The notes under the pieces are model-generated. The model saw only the letters and a list, made by a program, of their open reading frames with translations. It had not been told where the DNA came from and did no database searches. A stretch of 64,000 nucleotides of DNA, taken from positions 58,483 to 122,482 of the forward strand of contig JABDPB010000135.1 in assembly GCA_013042995.1 (NCBI GenBank), read 5' to 3'. Of this stretch, positions 24,219 to 35,621 are shown one piece after another. This DNA comes from Ignavibacteriaceae bacterium (lineage in GTDB: Bacteria; Bacteroidota; Ignavibacteria; Ignavibacteriales; Ignavibacteriaceae). Made by a program: the position numbers and the translations under genes. How positions within the stretch are numbered: the first letter of the stretch is position 1; each line of letters begins with the position of its first letter.

Positions 24219-24916
24219 TTAATTATTTCGAGATGCAATTAAAATAAGATCTGGTGTAATGATATTTGATAATTTAATATTGTACAACTTTTCAATTATC
24301 CTCTGATAGCACTTCACAGCAAAAAGTCTCTTTTTACCAATATAAGTATTATGAACCTCCAGCTTTGAAAACTCAGCTTGATTAAAAACCTGCTTTATAC
24401 TTTCCTCTGTAAATCCGACTTCATGTGTAAAATCAATGTATCTGTTTCTCAAACCAAACAAACTTCCCATATTTGGTGTACGAATTATTATCTGCCCGTT
24501 AAGATTTAGTGACTCATGTAGGAGTTTGACGAATTCAATAATACTATCACGACTAATATGTTCGATTAAATCATAAAGGATAACTAAATCATATTTTTTT
24601 CATTTTTCACTAGAAAACTTAGTGCTTCATCTTTAATAACTTTATGCGTAACATATTTCATGCAGATTGACAATTGTTCTTCAGAATGATCAACACCTAA
24701 GTAGTTAGTTACCCCTATACTCTTTAAATAAAATAAAAGACCACCAATGCCACATCCCAGTTCTAGTACTTCTTTGTTTTCAAGTGAATCAACATATGGC
24801 ATAAAATTTCTATCATATATATCAATTACTCCTTCATACCATTTTTTTATTGATTTTTCAGAAGTCGGATAAATTTCATTTATTTGTGCATAATGCTTTG
24901 AGAAATACTTCTTCAT
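24219..24916 (-). pseudogene. class I SAM-dependent methyltransferase, frameshifted in an A7 run
   Basis: Two track ORFs (24584-24916 and 24219-24470) are pieces of one gene. The first has the SAM-binding glycine motif (VLELGCGIGGLLFYL) and the acidic loop LGVDHSEEQL, and ends at a TAG after LVKNEKNMI. Restoring one A in the A7 run at 24594-24600 reads on as KKYDLVILYDLIEHISRDS, the expected continuation (the DLIEH of Methyltransf_11/23 families), and runs through the second ORF to its stop. Total is about 232 residues. Causes may be a real mutation, a reversible slippage site or a sequencing error. The substrate is probably a sugar of the surface glycan, by context. Confidence 0.85.
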
Positions 24917-31087: not shown

Positions 31088-31861
31088 ATGAAAAAACTTA
31101 TTCTAACCGGCATTTTACTTTTTTCAGCAGTATTCAATATTTATTCTCAGGGAACTGCAGGCGAAAAAGCGAAGTTCGAATATCGCTATCTTATAGATAT
31201 GCCGACGGGCGGCATACTGGAAAAAGGTGCTGTTGGATTAACAACAGATATACTACCTGATGGAGTATTGGTCACAACACTTGAAGCTGGTGTATTCGAA
31301 AATGTAAGCTTTGGAATTTCTTACGGTGGCTCCAACTTAATCGGTTCAGGGAAAGTAGAATGGTACAAATTACCTGGAGTAAACTTTAGAGTACGAATAT
31401 TAAATGAAACCATTCTTCTTCCTGCTTTAACTTTAGGTTTCGACTCTCAGGGAAAAGGAGTTTACAACAATGATGTTAAAAGATATGCAATTAAGTCCCC
31501 CGGATTTTTTGCTGCTGTTAGTAAAAATTTTGACTTTCTTGGTTACCTAAGCTTGCACGGATCAATTAATTACTCTCTAGAAGGAAAAGACGGCGATAAT
31601 TTTGTAAACATAAGAGCAGGTGCAGAGAAAACTCTTGGTTCCAGTTTTTCATTATTAATTGAGTACGATTTCGCTTTAAATGACAATAAGTCAGCATCTT
31701 TTGGAGATGGCAAGGGATATTTAAACACTGGAATTCGATGGTCTGTTGGATCCGGTTTAACAATTGGATTTGATTTGCGCGATCTTCTAAGCAACAAAAG
31801 TGAAACTAAAAATGCAGCTGATAGAGCCCTAAGAATTGAATTTATAAAGACAATTTTCTAA
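31088..31861 (+). CDS. predicted outer-membrane beta-barrel protein (YjbH-like), function unknown
   Basis: A 257-residue protein with signal peptide (LILTGILLFSAVFNIYSQ) and alternating hydrophobic/polar strands throughout (LEAGVFENVSFGISYGG; GYLSLHGSINYSLEG), ending in a strand with terminal Phe (RIEFIKTIF), a beta-barrel C-terminal signal. The motif DMPTGGILEKGAVGLTTDI resembles the start of YjbH-like barrels of exopolysaccharide systems, but the match is weak. It is a lone gene, followed by a small symmetric hairpin. Confidence 0.7.
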   Translation: MKKLILTGILLFSAVFNIYSQGTAGEKAKFEYRYLIDMPTGGILEKGAVGLTTDILPDGVLVTTLEAGVFENVSFGISYGGSNLIGSGKVEWYKLPGVNFRVRILNETILLPALTLGFDSQGKGVYNNDVKRYAIKSPGFFAAVSKNFDFLGYLSLHGSINYSLEGKDGDNFVNIRAGAEKTLGSSFSLLIEYDFALNDNKSASFGDGKGYLNTGIRWSVGSGLTIGFDLRDLLSNKSETKNAADRALRIEFIKTIF

Positions 31862-31879
31862 TCCTACCTAGTTTATTAC

Positions 31880-31901
31880 ACTGTATTTTTTTTAATACAG
31901 T
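31880..31901. terminator. symmetric hairpin after the beta-barrel gene, weak terminator candidate
   Basis: ACTGTATT and AATACAGT form an 8-bp perfect stem around a T-rich loop, 19 bp past the stop. No T-run follows the stem on the plus strand, so termination is uncertain. Confidence 0.35.
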
Positions 31902-32031
31902 TCAGTTCACATATAACTACAAAAGTTATAAGAATATAAAACTTTTATATCATTTCTGAACTTTTTAACCGCCTTTAAACAGGCTTGATTATTGACTAAT
32001 TTCATCAAGTAATAACAAGCGAGGGATAAAA

Positions 32032-33330
32032 ATGAAATTCAATACAAAATTTTTCGGATTCTTACTTGTGTTTGTTGCATTTTCAATAACAGGATGCTAC
32101 ACTCAAGTCGCCACTACTGATTCTTCCACAATCCCATTAACCACAAATGAAGATGAACAATACAGTGATTATTATTATGAAGGAGAGGAAGAAGTTGATT
32201 CAAGTTATTTTGCTGAAGAGGAAACAGAGTATTATGAAGATGAAAGTGCTATAGTGAATAATTACTACTATGGTTATCCCTCAAGCACATATTATGCTAG
32301 CAGTTTTTATCCATCATTTAGTTTTGGTTTAACCGTAGGATTTGGGTTTGGATTCAGCTACGGATGGGGGTATCCGTACTACTATTCTTCCTATTATCCT
32401 TATTGGTCGTACTGGCCCGGATGGTGCGGATATGGATATTACTACCCGTCCTATTGTTATTACCCCTCTTACTATTCCGGTTACTATTCTGGCCATTACT
32501 ACTCGTATGGTGGATATGGCTATCCTTACTACAAATACAGAACTAGAGATAGCTATGTAACAAGAATACGGAACAACTCCGGCGGCAGAAATTATGGAAC
32601 AAGAAACAGAGATCCGATTGGAAGAAACACGGGTGGCACTGATTCTAGAACACGTGATGTTCTGACAAGAGATAAAGGTAGAGATTTAACAACTATTACA
32701 AACCGAGATGAAATCAATAGAAAAAACATTGGGACGCGGGATAGAGATGTTGTAAATGATGTAAGAAAAAAAGACGTTGTAAGAAATAAAACGGATAGAA
32801 CACTTAGAACAACAAAGACAGACAAAACATTCACCAGAGATAAAGACAAAGTTCGAAAGAACTATCTCGGAAAGGATAAAACAACTGATTTTACAAGGAA
32901 ATTTGGAACTAAGGAAGTAAACAGAAAAAAATCTTTTACATATAATAAAAACAAAAGAACTAATACAACTACTAACAGAAATACCGTTAGAGAAAACAAA
33001 ACAACAAATAAAAGATTTACTCCAAATACAAGAAAAAATAATACTACAAGGTCATATAGACCTCCAAAAACTAATAAATCACCTAAGCGGTATACAACAC
33101 CAAAACGTACGAATAAAACTCCAAGAACCTATTCTCCACCAAAGCGGAATAATAAGCCTCCGAGGACATATACTCCTCCTAAAAGGAATAATACACCAAA
33201 GTCGTATTCTCCGCCCAAAACTAATAGAACACCGAGGAGCTATTCTCCACCAAGGACGAATAATTCACCTAGAACAACTTCTCCACCAAGAAATAGTGGC
33301 GGTAACCGCACTAGCGGAAGAAGGAGATAA
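32032..33330 (+). CDS. Tyr/Gly-rich and Lys/Arg/Pro-repeat lipoprotein, unknown function
   Basis: 432 residues with lipobox SITGCYT (Cys22) and AGGG before the ATG. Four compositional zones follow: acidic Glu/Tyr stretch (about 45-80), a very Tyr/Gly/Ser-rich zone (about 80-175), an Arg/Thr/Asp/Lys zone (about 175-330), and a C-terminal block of repeats around PPKRNN/PRTYSPP with period near 11-12 residues (about 340-425). The strongly basic tail could bind polyanions such as polysaccharide or nucleic acid; this is inference from composition. It starts a four-gene cluster with two smaller lipoproteins and a barrel. Confidence 0.75.
   Translation: MKFNTKFFGFLLVFVAFSITGCYTQVATTDSSTIPLTTNEDEQYSDYYYEGEEEVDSSYFAEEETEYYEDESAIVNNYYYGYPSSTYYASSFYPSFSFGLTVGFGFGFSYGWGYPYYYSSYYPYWSYWPGWCGYGYYYPSYCYYPSYYSGYYSGHYYSYGGYGYPYYKYRTRDSYVTRIRNNSGGRNYGTRNRDPIGRNTGGTDSRTRDVLTRDKGRDLTTITNRDEINRKNIGTRDRDVVNDVRKKDVVRNKTDRTLRTTKTDKTFTRDKDKVRKNYLGKDKTTDFTRKFGTKEVNRKKSFTYNKNKRTNTTTNRNTVRENKTTNKRFTPNTRKNNTTRSYRPPKTNKSPKRYTTPKRTNKTPRTYSPPKRNNKPPRTYTPPKRNNTPKSYSPPKTNRTPRSYSPPRTNNSPRTTSPPRNSGGNRTSGRRR
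33055..33295 (+). repeat. in-frame tandem repeat coding PPK/R-T/N-rich units
   Basis: The 3' end of the lipoprotein gene repeats a degenerate unit of about 33-36 bp encoding variants of YSPPKRNNKPPRT. Units differ at many third positions, so the array is old rather than freshly expanded. Confidence 0.6.
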
Positions 33331-33335
33331 TTAAA

Positions 33336-33695
33336 ATGAGAGGGGTTACATTAATAATAGGTTTTGGTTCGCTTTTGGCTTTAACAAATGGCTGTTACAC
33401 CATTGTCTCTAATTCAAACAATGTAAATGGTGATGTAAGCAATATAACAGTAATAAATTATCCACCACCACCACCTATATTTGATCCGATTATTGTGGTT
33501 CCTCCATCACTTCCTCCTGCACCACCATACAAGGAACGACCGGTTGTTACCAGACCTCCGGAAGAGAGACCAAAATGGAACCCTTCTTATGGGAAAAGAG
33601 ACCCTCTTCGTGGTCATGGAGAAAAAGGAACGACCGGTCATAGAACTTCCGATACAATAAAAAGAGATGGAAACAAAACCGGAAGTAGAAGATGA
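33336..33695 (+). CDS. small Pro-rich lipoprotein, unknown function
   Basis: 119 residues with lipobox LTNGCYT (Cys20). Past the signal it has a proline run (YPPPPPIFDP, PSLPPAPPYKERP) and a basic C-terminus (GKRDPLRGHGEKG). It starts 5 bp after the preceding lipoprotein and its end overlaps the next start (ATGA). The N-terminal ten residues of the mature form resemble its neighbours, suggesting an old family relation, but the rest has diverged in composition. Confidence 0.65.
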   Translation: MRGVTLIIGFGSLLALTNGCYTIVSNSNNVNGDVSNITVINYPPPPPIFDPIIVVPPSLPPAPPYKERPVVTRPPEERPKWNPSYGKRDPLRGHGEKGTTGHRTSDTIKRDGNKTGSRR

Positions 33696-34099
33696 AAGCA
33701 ATTACCATCATCATTACATTTACCTTTATTAGTTTCTTAACTGGATGTTACACCACGTTAGGAATCATAGAAGAAAAACAAACTGACTATTCAGAGAATA
33801 TAGAAATTGAAGAATTGGAATTAGAAGAAGATAACATAACCTCAAGTTATTTTGATGAGGATATGGAAGAAGTTTATTATGAAGAAAGCGAAATGGAGCA
33901 GAACGATGTTTACTATGAAGAAAGTACAAATGATTTCTTTACGATTTTTTTAGGTGCCGTCTCGGAGTTTTTTTCATCAGGAGCTTTCAATATAGTAATT
34001 GATTTATCCTCAGGCTCTTCAAGCAGCAGTTCAGACAGCAACTACAGTGATAACAATTCAAGAAATAATTCAGGCAGCAGAAATTACGATGGGAGATAA
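33692..34099 (+). CDS. small acidic lipoprotein, unknown function
   Basis: 135 residues with lipobox FLTGCYT (Cys19), an acidic Glu/Tyr region (IEIEELELEEDNITSSYFDE; EEVYYEESEMEQ) like the acidic zone of the large lipoprotein upstream, a short hydrophobic stretch (FTIFLGAVSEFFSSGAFNIVI) and a Ser/Asn-rich tail. It pairs in charge with the basic tails of the two preceding lipoproteins, so an electrostatic complex is conceivable. The stop is 3 bp before the barrel gene. Confidence 0.65.
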   Translation: MKAITIIITFTFISFLTGCYTTLGIIEEKQTDYSENIEIEELELEEDNITSSYFDEDMEEVYYEESEMEQNDVYYEESTNDFFTIFLGAVSEFFSSGAFNIVIDLSSGSSSSSSDSNYSDNNSRNNSGSRNYDGR

Positions 34100-34102
34100 A
34101 GA

Positions 34103-35566
34103 ATGAAAAGATTTTTATACTTAAACATAATTTTAATATTTGCATTTTTACTGGCTAATACATCGGCACAAAACTACAATGATGCCCTTATATTAAGTGA
34201 ACCAGGATTTTATACAAGCGCCAGAGCACTTTCATTAGGAAATAGCTATACTTCAATGAGCAATGATTTTAGCGGTGTACTATTCAATCCCGCCGGGATA
34301 GGTCTTGTAAAAAATGTACAGCTCTCCGGTGGAATGAATTTTAATGCATTCAGTAACAGTACAACATTTTTTAATTCACAAACCAACTCTTCAAAAAATG
34401 CTGTTAGTTTAAACCAGTTTGGAATCATTTATCCAATTCCCACTTTACAAGGCAGTTGGGTATTCGCAATTGGTTACAACCGCGTAAAAGATTTTAATCG
34501 TACGTTAGAATTTGATGGCTTTAATAATGGTAATACGTCTATGATTCAGGATTTAACCGGCGAGTTCAACGAGCAAATTCCAATAACAAATGATTTGGGA
34601 TTGGCTTATGAAATCCGGGACCCAAACACAGATCAATATATAAGAGATACAACATTAATAGATGGTTTATTAAATCAATCCGGAAGAATTAGGAGAAAAG
34701 GAAACATTGGTAAATGGTCTTTTTCTAGTTCAGTTGAAGTTGCAAGAGGATTTTTTATCGGAGGAACTTTTAACATTCTTTCAGGATCATTTAAAAGTGA
34801 TAAAGATTATTGGGAAGATGATACAGGAGATATTTACGGAGCAGGTTTGGAACTGGTACCCGGTGATCCAACCACGAGAGATTTCCAATCATTTTATTTA
34901 AATGATATTATTGAGTGGAACTTATCAGGTTGGGATGCAAACTTAGGTGTTCTTTACAGTTGGCAAAATCGGTTTCGGTTTGGTGCATCGGTTAAATTTC
35001 CAAGCTATTTTACGGTTAAAGAAACATATTACGTAGATGCTACCACTGATTTTGGAGTAAGCAGTGGATATGCACTGCAGCCAATTGTTGATAAAATAGA
35101 GTACGGAATCAGAACTCCTTTTGAATATGCTTTAGGTGCATCTGGAACATTTTCTATTGTTACTTTAAGCGGTGACATAAAAATTATTGATTACACTCAA
35201 ATGGATTTTAATAAAGGTTTTGATTCACAATACAGAATTGAAAGAAAACGCGAGATAGAAGATTTGTTTACAACAGTGGTTAATTTGCACGCAGGTGCTG
35301 AATTTAAATTTCCTCAAACTCCCGTTTTAGGAAGATTCGGTGTGATGTATTTACCATCTCAATTTGAGGGCGATCCATCAGAATTTGATAAAAAATATTT
35401 AACTGCTGGTGTAGGAGTCTACCTTGCTAATATGTTTAAGATAGACGTTGCGTACGCCTACGGATGGTGGGAAGATTTTGGTGATAATTATGGCGTAAAT
35501 GCATCAAGAACTCTTCAGGATATAACTGTGAACAATTTTATTGTAAACTTTATTGTAAATTTGTAA
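34103..35566 (+). CDS. PorV/FadL-like outer-membrane beta-barrel protein
   Basis: 487 residues with a signal peptide (IILIFAFLLANTSAQ) and the typical opening of the PorV/PorQ/FadL-like family, FYTSARALSLGNSYTSMSND then VLFNPAGIG. The barrel region shows regular amphipathic strands, and the last strand ends NNFIVNFIVNL. PorV is the T9SS shuttle porin, but this superfamily has many members, so the exact role is open. It is last in the lipoprotein cluster, followed by a good terminator. Confidence 0.83.
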   Translation: MKRFLYLNIILIFAFLLANTSAQNYNDALILSEPGFYTSARALSLGNSYTSMSNDFSGVLFNPAGIGLVKNVQLSGGMNFNAFSNSTTFFNSQTNSSKNAVSLNQFGIIYPIPTLQGSWVFAIGYNRVKDFNRTLEFDGFNNGNTSMIQDLTGEFNEQIPITNDLGLAYEIRDPNTDQYIRDTTLIDGLLNQSGRIRRKGNIGKWSFSSSVEVARGFFIGGTFNILSGSFKSDKDYWEDDTGDIYGAGLELVPGDPTTRDFQSFYLNDIIEWNLSGWDANLGVLYSWQNRFRFGASVKFPSYFTVKETYYVDATTDFGVSSGYALQPIVDKIEYGIRTPFEYALGASGTFSIVTLSGDIKIIDYTQMDFNKGFDSQYRIERKREIEDLFTTVVNLHAGAEFKFPQTPVLGRFGVMYLPSQFEGDPSEFDKKYLTAGVGVYLANMFKIDVAYAYGWWEDFGDNYGVNASRTLQDITVNNFIVNFIVNL

Positions 35567-35593
35567 GGTTATCCCAATCTCGAATTACAATTA

Positions 35594-35621
35594 GGGAGGC
35601 ACAATTTGCTTCCCTTTTTTT
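35594..35621 (+). terminator. Rho-independent terminator after the lipoprotein/barrel cluster
   Basis: GGGAGGC and GCTTCCC pair (one G-T wobble) around a 7-base loop and are followed by seven T residues, 28 bp after the stop codon. Confidence 0.85.

What the first reader, a model, noticed from the sequence alone, without database searches (positions are those of the whole stretch)
31088..35566. Three GCYT lipoproteins of opposite charge next to outer-membrane barrels
Three consecutive lipoproteins share Gly-Cys-Tyr-Thr at the lipidation site. The first combines an acidic, a Tyr/Gly-rich and a strongly basic repeat zone, the second is Pro-rich and basic, the third acidic. They run into a PorV/FadL-like barrel within 3-5 bp spacings and end at one terminator. 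I do not recognise this as a known system; a surface-fibre, adhesion or secretion assembly is possible.
Basis: partly seen in the sequence, partly recalled or inferred. Interest (0 to 1): 0.6.

Follow-up and report, generated by a model that had tools for sequence, protein, structure and literature searches.

The report
Conserved barrel and charge-block lipoprotein cluster
A small gene cluster found across a large group of little-studied bacteria makes two outer-membrane pores and one to three unusual fat-anchored proteins (acidic, then tyrosine-rich, then strongly basic); it looks like an undescribed machine that builds or holds something at the cell envelope, but its function has not been tested.

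Summary
The three lipoproteins are the only GCYT lipoproteins found in a 91.6%-complete assembly; a 479-kb sample of it held 26 lipoprotein-like ORFs. Around the barrel in 46 informative loci (14 numbered families plus named contigs), 44 have a CYT-type lipoprotein directly upstream and 38 also an upstream 257-aa-type barrel. The trio also occurs in other classes of the phylum. In 43/43 large lipoproteins the order is acidic, Tyr/Trp-rich, strongly basic.

The large barrel has a FadL fold. Its closest solved fold is BamG of the Bacteroidota BAM complex, but it is not BamG: this genome has its own above-cut-off bamG elsewhere, also just downstream of a lipoprotein gene. The small barrel resembles the N-terminal, FapF-like barrel of YjbH/GfcD.

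Best explanation: an envelope-assembly module in which the FadL-fold barrel is a BamG-like platform for charge-block lipoproteins docked by their shared Cys-Tyr-Thr N-terminus. Docking, location (surface or periplasm) and biological role are inference. The lipoproteins lack the usual Bacteroidota surface-export signal, so a periplasmic tether remains a serious rival. No description of the cluster was found in the open-access library.

The parts
31088..31861 (+). 257-aa small outer-membrane barrel (12 predicted strands), relative of the N-terminal FapF-like barrel of YjbH/GfcD; one copy per genome
   Evidence: Pfam YjbH, N-terminal part of the model, in 20 of 27 family members, best 6e-7 (window copy 4e-4, below cut-off); AF2 pLDDT 83; FapF top Foldseek hit, TM about 0.5; one match per genome in 93 genomes
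32032..33330 (+). Lipoprotein A, 432 aa: CYTQ N-terminus, acidic block, Tyr/Trp-rich block, long Arg/Lys/Pro-rich tail ending SGRRR
   Evidence: ORF; block charges -17/+2/+56; same block order in 43 of 43 relatives; alignment A3
32095..32103 (+). Cys-Tyr-Thr codons at the lipidation site of lipoprotein A
   Evidence: C, Y and T invariant in the 29 aligned relatives, which were chosen partly by this motif
33336..33695 (+). Lipoprotein B, 119 aa, GCYTI, Pro-rich, net +6, ends GSRR
33692..34099 (+). Lipoprotein C, 135 aa, GCYTT, acidic (net -25), ends RNNSGSRNYDGR
34103..35566 (+). 487-aa, 14-strand FadL-fold barrel with a 40-residue mature N-terminal tail up to the N of NPAG
   Evidence: Pfam Toluene_X in 32 of 36 members; AF2 pLDDT 90.8; best PDB fold BamG 9hiv_F, E 4e-19; tail length 40 in all 33 measurable members
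35593..35615 (+). terminator-like hairpin with T run that closes the unit

Best explanation
It is an ancient, mostly single-copy outer-membrane assembly module. Shown by sequence and model: a FadL-fold barrel is preceded by one to three lipoproteins, the main one having the fixed block order acidic - Tyr/Trp-rich - basic, and usually by a small YjbH/FapF-like barrel. Inferred: the large barrel is a protein platform, not a transporter, used as BamG is used for BamH. Its long N-terminal tail and outer loops dock the lipidated N-terminus of the lipoproteins, and the shared Cys-Tyr-Thr is that docking motif, which is why adjacent lipoproteins share it. The charge-segregated chains then associate with each other (the acidic lipoprotein C and the acidic block of A with basic tails) and with anionic envelope polymers, giving a cohesive layer or scaffold; the small barrel would help export or position one component or a polymer.
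For: Synteny over 46 loci: 44 with a CYT-type lipoprotein, 38 also with the small barrel; further classes. CYT is unique to this cluster in the genome. Block order in 43 of 43 and an Arg in the last three residues of 68 of 72 cluster proteins, against 90 of 429 other ORFs. Barrel fold nearest to BamG. Mature tail of 40 residues with no length variation in 33 sequences, against 42 in this genome's BamG and 32 in its FadL (sequences, these two counted by hand) and 33 in E. coli FadL (mutant numbering). In BamG an extended tail threads the lateral opening, and the conserved lipidated N-terminus of BamH packs against BamG (PMC12611786, PMC12578637). This genome's bamG likewise lies directly after a lipoprotein gene.
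Against: No interaction, location or phenotype was tested. At least two acidic residues at +2 to +7, the usual surface-export signal, occur in 1 of 67 cluster lipoproteins against 9 of 23 other lipoproteins of this genome, so surface exposure is doubtful. In several more distant families the partner lipoprotein lacks CYT, so the docking motif would be lineage-specific. Loci were chosen by the barrel and aligned lipoproteins partly by the motif, and some families were only sampled. The invariant mature Gln of the barrel follows from the Bacteroidetes Q-rule (PMC5837995) and is no evidence of docking.
Confidence: 0.4

Rival explanations
1. [quoted passage not shown]
For: No canonical surface-export signal (1 of 67 with two or more acidic residues at +2 to +7, against 9 of 23); the long basic disordered-looking tail ends in Arg in 68 of 72.
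Against: The tail ends in Arg, not the Lys used for covalent peptidoglycan linkage by Braun lipoprotein (own knowledge). A Tyr/Trp block of about 43% is unusual for a tether. It is unclear whether the acidic-residue rule holds in this class.
Confidence: 0.25
2. FadL-type uptake: the large barrel imports a hydrophobic molecule and the lipoproteins are accessory capture or gating factors.
For: Pfam Toluene_X in 32 of 36; FadL and TodX among the top folds.
Against: BamG ranks above FadL; the N-tail is 8 residues longer than in this genome's FadL and of fixed length; a separate, much better Toluene_X match exists in the genome (4e-63); low-complexity lipoproteins are not part of known FadL systems (own knowledge).
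Confidence: 0.12
3. Secretion or assembly of a low-complexity fibre or of a polysaccharide through the small YjbH/FapF-like barrel, the lipoproteins being the fibre subunits or the anchor of the polymer.
For: The small barrel matches the N-terminal part of Pfam YjbH and FapF in fold, agreeing with the published statement that the N-terminal halves of YjbH and GfcD resemble FapF (PMC9603273); the gfc operon pairs such a barrel with a lipoprotein and a Thr-rich low-complexity protein (PMC8592465).
Against: It lacks the C-terminal PgaA-like barrel of YjbH; TM about 0.5 is close to generic for small barrels; the small barrel is often encoded elsewhere while the lipoprotein-large barrel pair stays together; no OPX, polymerase or FapC-like gene in the cluster.
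Confidence: 0.13
4. A branch of the type IX secretion system: the large barrel is a PorV-type shuttle and the lipoproteins are its cargo or attachment factors.
For: NCBIfam PorV_fam and PorV2 match 35 of 36 members; the window copy is far below both cut-offs.
Against: SprA is present in 292 of 294 genomes of the class, including families without the cluster; PorV ranks 30th by fold.
Confidence: 0.05

Closest known systems
BamG-BamH of the Bacteroidota BAM complex (PMC12611786, PMC12578637)
   Same: FadL-fold barrel with a long N-terminal tail; the lipoprotein partner has a conserved N-terminus; lipoprotein gene next to the bamG gene in this genome; best solved fold match
   Different: The window barrel gives no NF053685 match while another gene in the genome scores 265 bits (cut-off 250); the lipoproteins are low-complexity and lack the acidic surface-export signal that BamH-K carry
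FadL / TodX hydrophobic transporters (Pfam PF03349)
   Same: 14-strand fold, NPA motif, N-terminal tail
   Different: Longer fixed-length tail, lipoprotein partners, no reported Toluene_X match for the window copy itself
YjbH / GfcD (Pfam PF06082) and FapF
   Same: Small barrel matches the N-terminal half of YjbH by sequence and FapF by fold
   Different: No second, PgaA-like barrel; no capsule, exopolysaccharide or Fap genes next to it
PorV / PorQ of the type IX secretion system
   Same: Distant FadL-superfamily barrel
   Different: Window copy far below family cut-offs; type IX secretion is present with or without the cluster

Membership tests
BamG (NCBIfam NF053685) | score over the curated cut-off of 250 bits | tested here: not met
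   Own-genome search: only G000:C25 passes (265 bits); the window barrel is not among the five matches at E<=1
BamG | FadL fold with an N-terminal tail about 10 residues longer than FadL | tested here: met
   AF2 model and Foldseek; tail 40 against 32-33 in FadL and 42 in own BamG.
BamG | binds BamA and BamH | not testable with these tools
   needs pull-down or complex structure
BamH | folded two-domain surface lipoprotein with two or more acidic residues after the Cys | tested here: not met
   Low-complexity block composition; acidic signal in 1 of 67
FadL/Toluene_X (PF03349) | family match and 14-strand fold | tested here: met
   32 of 36 members by profile, fold by model; the window copy itself has no reported match
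PorV (type IX) | score over NCBIfam PorV cut-offs | tested here: not met
   window 29.8 bits against 90 for PorV_fam and 20.5 against 325 for PorV2
YjbH (PF06082) | full-length double barrel and score over the cut-off | tested here: not met
   19.8 bits against 24; only profile positions 10-108 of 658 covered
Bacteroidota surface lipoprotein (LES) | two or more acidic residues within six residues after Cys | tested here: not met
   None in the three window lipoproteins (contexts); 1 of 67 in relatives

The most novel reading that the evidence does not exclude
A previously undescribed outer-membrane system, conserved in Ignavibacteria and sister classes, in which a BamG-like FadL-fold platform assembles phase-separating or gel-forming charge-block lipoproteins (acidic - Tyr/Trp - Arg-rich) through a shared Cys-Tyr-Thr docking motif, without the canonical surface-export signal.
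Probability: 0.35. Interest if true: 0.78.

Novelty: new variant of a known kind. Interest (0 to 1): 0.58.

Why it matters
FadL-fold barrels were recently shown to serve as protein platforms in Bacteroidota (BamG, PorV). This cluster would be a further, independent use, paired with low-complexity lipoproteins whose block order is kept while their sequence diverges. It gives a precise target (one cluster, a three-residue motif, cultured relatives in the class) for the open questions of how lipoproteins are sorted in Ignavibacteria and what low-complexity envelope proteins do.

Tried and rejected
BamG identity was suggested by NCBIfam hits in relatives but rejected by the own-genome search. A tie to type IX secretion was tested by co-occurrence and gave no discrimination, because SprA is nearly universal in the class. 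The invariant Gln at the barrel's mature N-terminus was first taken as a docking feature and dropped after finding the Q-rule (PMC5837995; Ignavibacterium album Q-value 77%). FapF as a functional match was not pressed, because TM is about 0.5 and many generic barrels follow. Literature searches on FadL, lipoprotein, Ignavibacteria and tyrosine-rich found nothing on the cluster; the library holds open-access papers only. The putative bamH neighbour had no PDB or Pfam match, so its identity rests on position and lipobox only. The C-terminal R-N-x-G type motif (59 of 72 against 23 expected by shuffling) was defined after looking at the tails and has no functional explanation.

Full report
What is in the window. 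Five genes on the + strand: a 257-aa small barrel (31088-31861); after 170 bp three lipoproteins of 432, 119 and 135 aa; and a 487-aa barrel ending at 35566, closed by a hairpin with a T run. The last four genes are spaced 5 bp, -4 bp and 3 bp, so they are probably one transcript. Neighbours are an rsgA-like GTPase and menaquinone genes downstream (named from sequence by own knowledge), and divergent TPR and DUF4292 genes upstream. The related contigs fetched by the barrel are Ignavibacteria-type (Ignavibacterium, Melioribacter and others).

Is the GCYT sharing more than chance? Yes. In the whole assembly (91.6% complete) GCYT-coding DNA has 11 matches against 12 for the reversed control, but only the three in this cluster lie at lipidation sites. 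In 479 kb of the genome, 26 ORFs look like lipoproteins and only these three have Cys-Tyr-Thr.

Conservation. The barrel was found in 235 of 294 genomes of the class with one query sequence. A profile search of 19 chosen genomes finds one strong hit (E 1e-77 or better, next unrelated hit 4e-13 or weaker) in ten families of the class where the single-sequence match was absent or weak, but only weak hits in one genome each of four families (f6, f8, f15, f16). In 46 informative loci picked along the ranked list (14 numbered families, plus named contigs), 44 have a Cys-Tyr/Phe/His-Thr/Pro/Ile lipoprotein directly upstream, and 38 have the small barrel upstream of that. The number of genes in between is 1 in 21 loci, 2 in 21, 3 in 3 and 0 in 1. 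Other classes of the phylum keep the same trio (L123, L125, L126, L129, L130). In more distant families the barrel still follows a basic-tailed lipoprotein, but without CYT (L167, L170, L171, L172, L176). So the lipoprotein-large barrel pair is the core, the small barrel a frequent companion, and CYT a lineage-wide mark. The small barrel is present once per genome in all 93 genomes where it was found, sometimes away from the pair.

The lipoproteins. The large one shows in 43 of 43 relatives an acidic start (mean net charge -11), an 80-residue stretch with on average 43% Tyr plus Trp (lowest 34%) and a basic tail (mean +30); these 43 were selected by position, length and CYT-Q/E/K, not by charge. 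Identity to the window copy is 21-43%, so architecture is kept while sequence drifts. 68 of 72 cluster proteins have Arg in the last three residues, against 90 of 429 other ORFs of the same loci, and 59 of 72 have an R-N-x-G type motif near the end, against 23 expected after shuffling their own tails. No Pfam or NCBIfam model recognises them. Only 1 of 67 has the two acidic residues after the Cys that mark surface lipoproteins in Bacteroides, against 9 of 23 other lipoproteins of this genome.

The large barrel. AF2 gives a confident 14-strand model (pLDDT 90.8). The best solved folds are BamG (B. thetaiotaomicron, F. johnsoniae, P. gingivalis) and FadL. It is not BamG: in this genome another gene passes the BamG cut-off (265 bits) and the window barrel does not match at all. 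That other gene overlaps an upstream lipoprotein gene, probably bamH (inferred from position and lipobox only, no PDB or Pfam match). The mature N-terminal tail up to the N of NPAG is exactly 40 residues in all 33 members measured; counted by hand from the sequences in that output, this genome's BamG has 42 and its FadL 32; E. coli FadL has 33 by the mutant names. In BamG the extension threads the lateral opening and meets BamA, and the lipidated N-terminus of BamH packs against BamG (PMC12611786, PMC12578637).

The small barrel. Twenty of 27 members match the N-terminal part of Pfam YjbH, and the AF2 model (pLDDT 83) hits FapF first. This agrees with the published finding that the N-terminal halves of YjbH and GfcD resemble FapF (PMC9603273). 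It lacks the second barrel.

Interpretation. By analogy with BamG-BamH I propose a platform barrel that docks lipoproteins by a common N-terminal motif, with charge-block chains forming a cohesive envelope layer. Shown: genes, conservation, folds by prediction, compositions. Inferred: docking, association, location and function. The missing surface-export signal is the main argument for the tether rival. Type IX secretion does not explain the distribution.

Limits. Families are numbered, not named; loci were picked by hand from the ranked list, so counts are not a random sample; gene calls are mechanical; E-values are per genome. All interaction claims are untested.

Noticed in passing
G000:C25:16855-18036 (L141:7847-9097, - strand) and L141:9097-10275 (-): This genome's true BamG (265 bits) overlaps an upstream 393-aa lipoprotein (SCTDEPSS), probably BamH though without Pfam or PDB match: a lipoprotein-FadL-fold pair of the same layout as the finding.
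   Followed up: partly
window 24219-24916 (-): A SAM-methyltransferase-like reading frame is split in two: the first part stops near 24584 and the continuation lies in another frame; frameshift in the organism or in the assembly.
   Followed up: partly
L123:3856-4620, L129:4505-5137, L165:3320-4000 (coordinates with the anchor gene turned to the + strand): In other classes a second lipoprotein follows lipoprotein A, with GCGSFT, GCMTYT or GCGFTK in place of GCYT, and an Arg-containing end.
   Followed up: no
L167, L170, L172, L176 (lipoprotein upstream of the barrel): Partner lipoproteins without CYT share an aromatic Y-F-G-Y or W-G-Y-N motif shortly after the Cys, perhaps an alternative N-terminal motif.
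   Followed up: no
L009:447-848, L012:2886-3254, L013:2487-2900, L014:2946-3332: A small protein of 122-137 aa with one N-terminal hydrophobic segment sits just upstream of the small barrel in relatives (after cysS in several) but not at this place in the window.
   Followed up: no
L072, L076, L078, L082 (upstream of the small barrel or lipoprotein): A 462-514-aa protein with a conserved LPK..R..FG(E/D)D tail lies between cysS and the cluster in several families.
   Followed up: no
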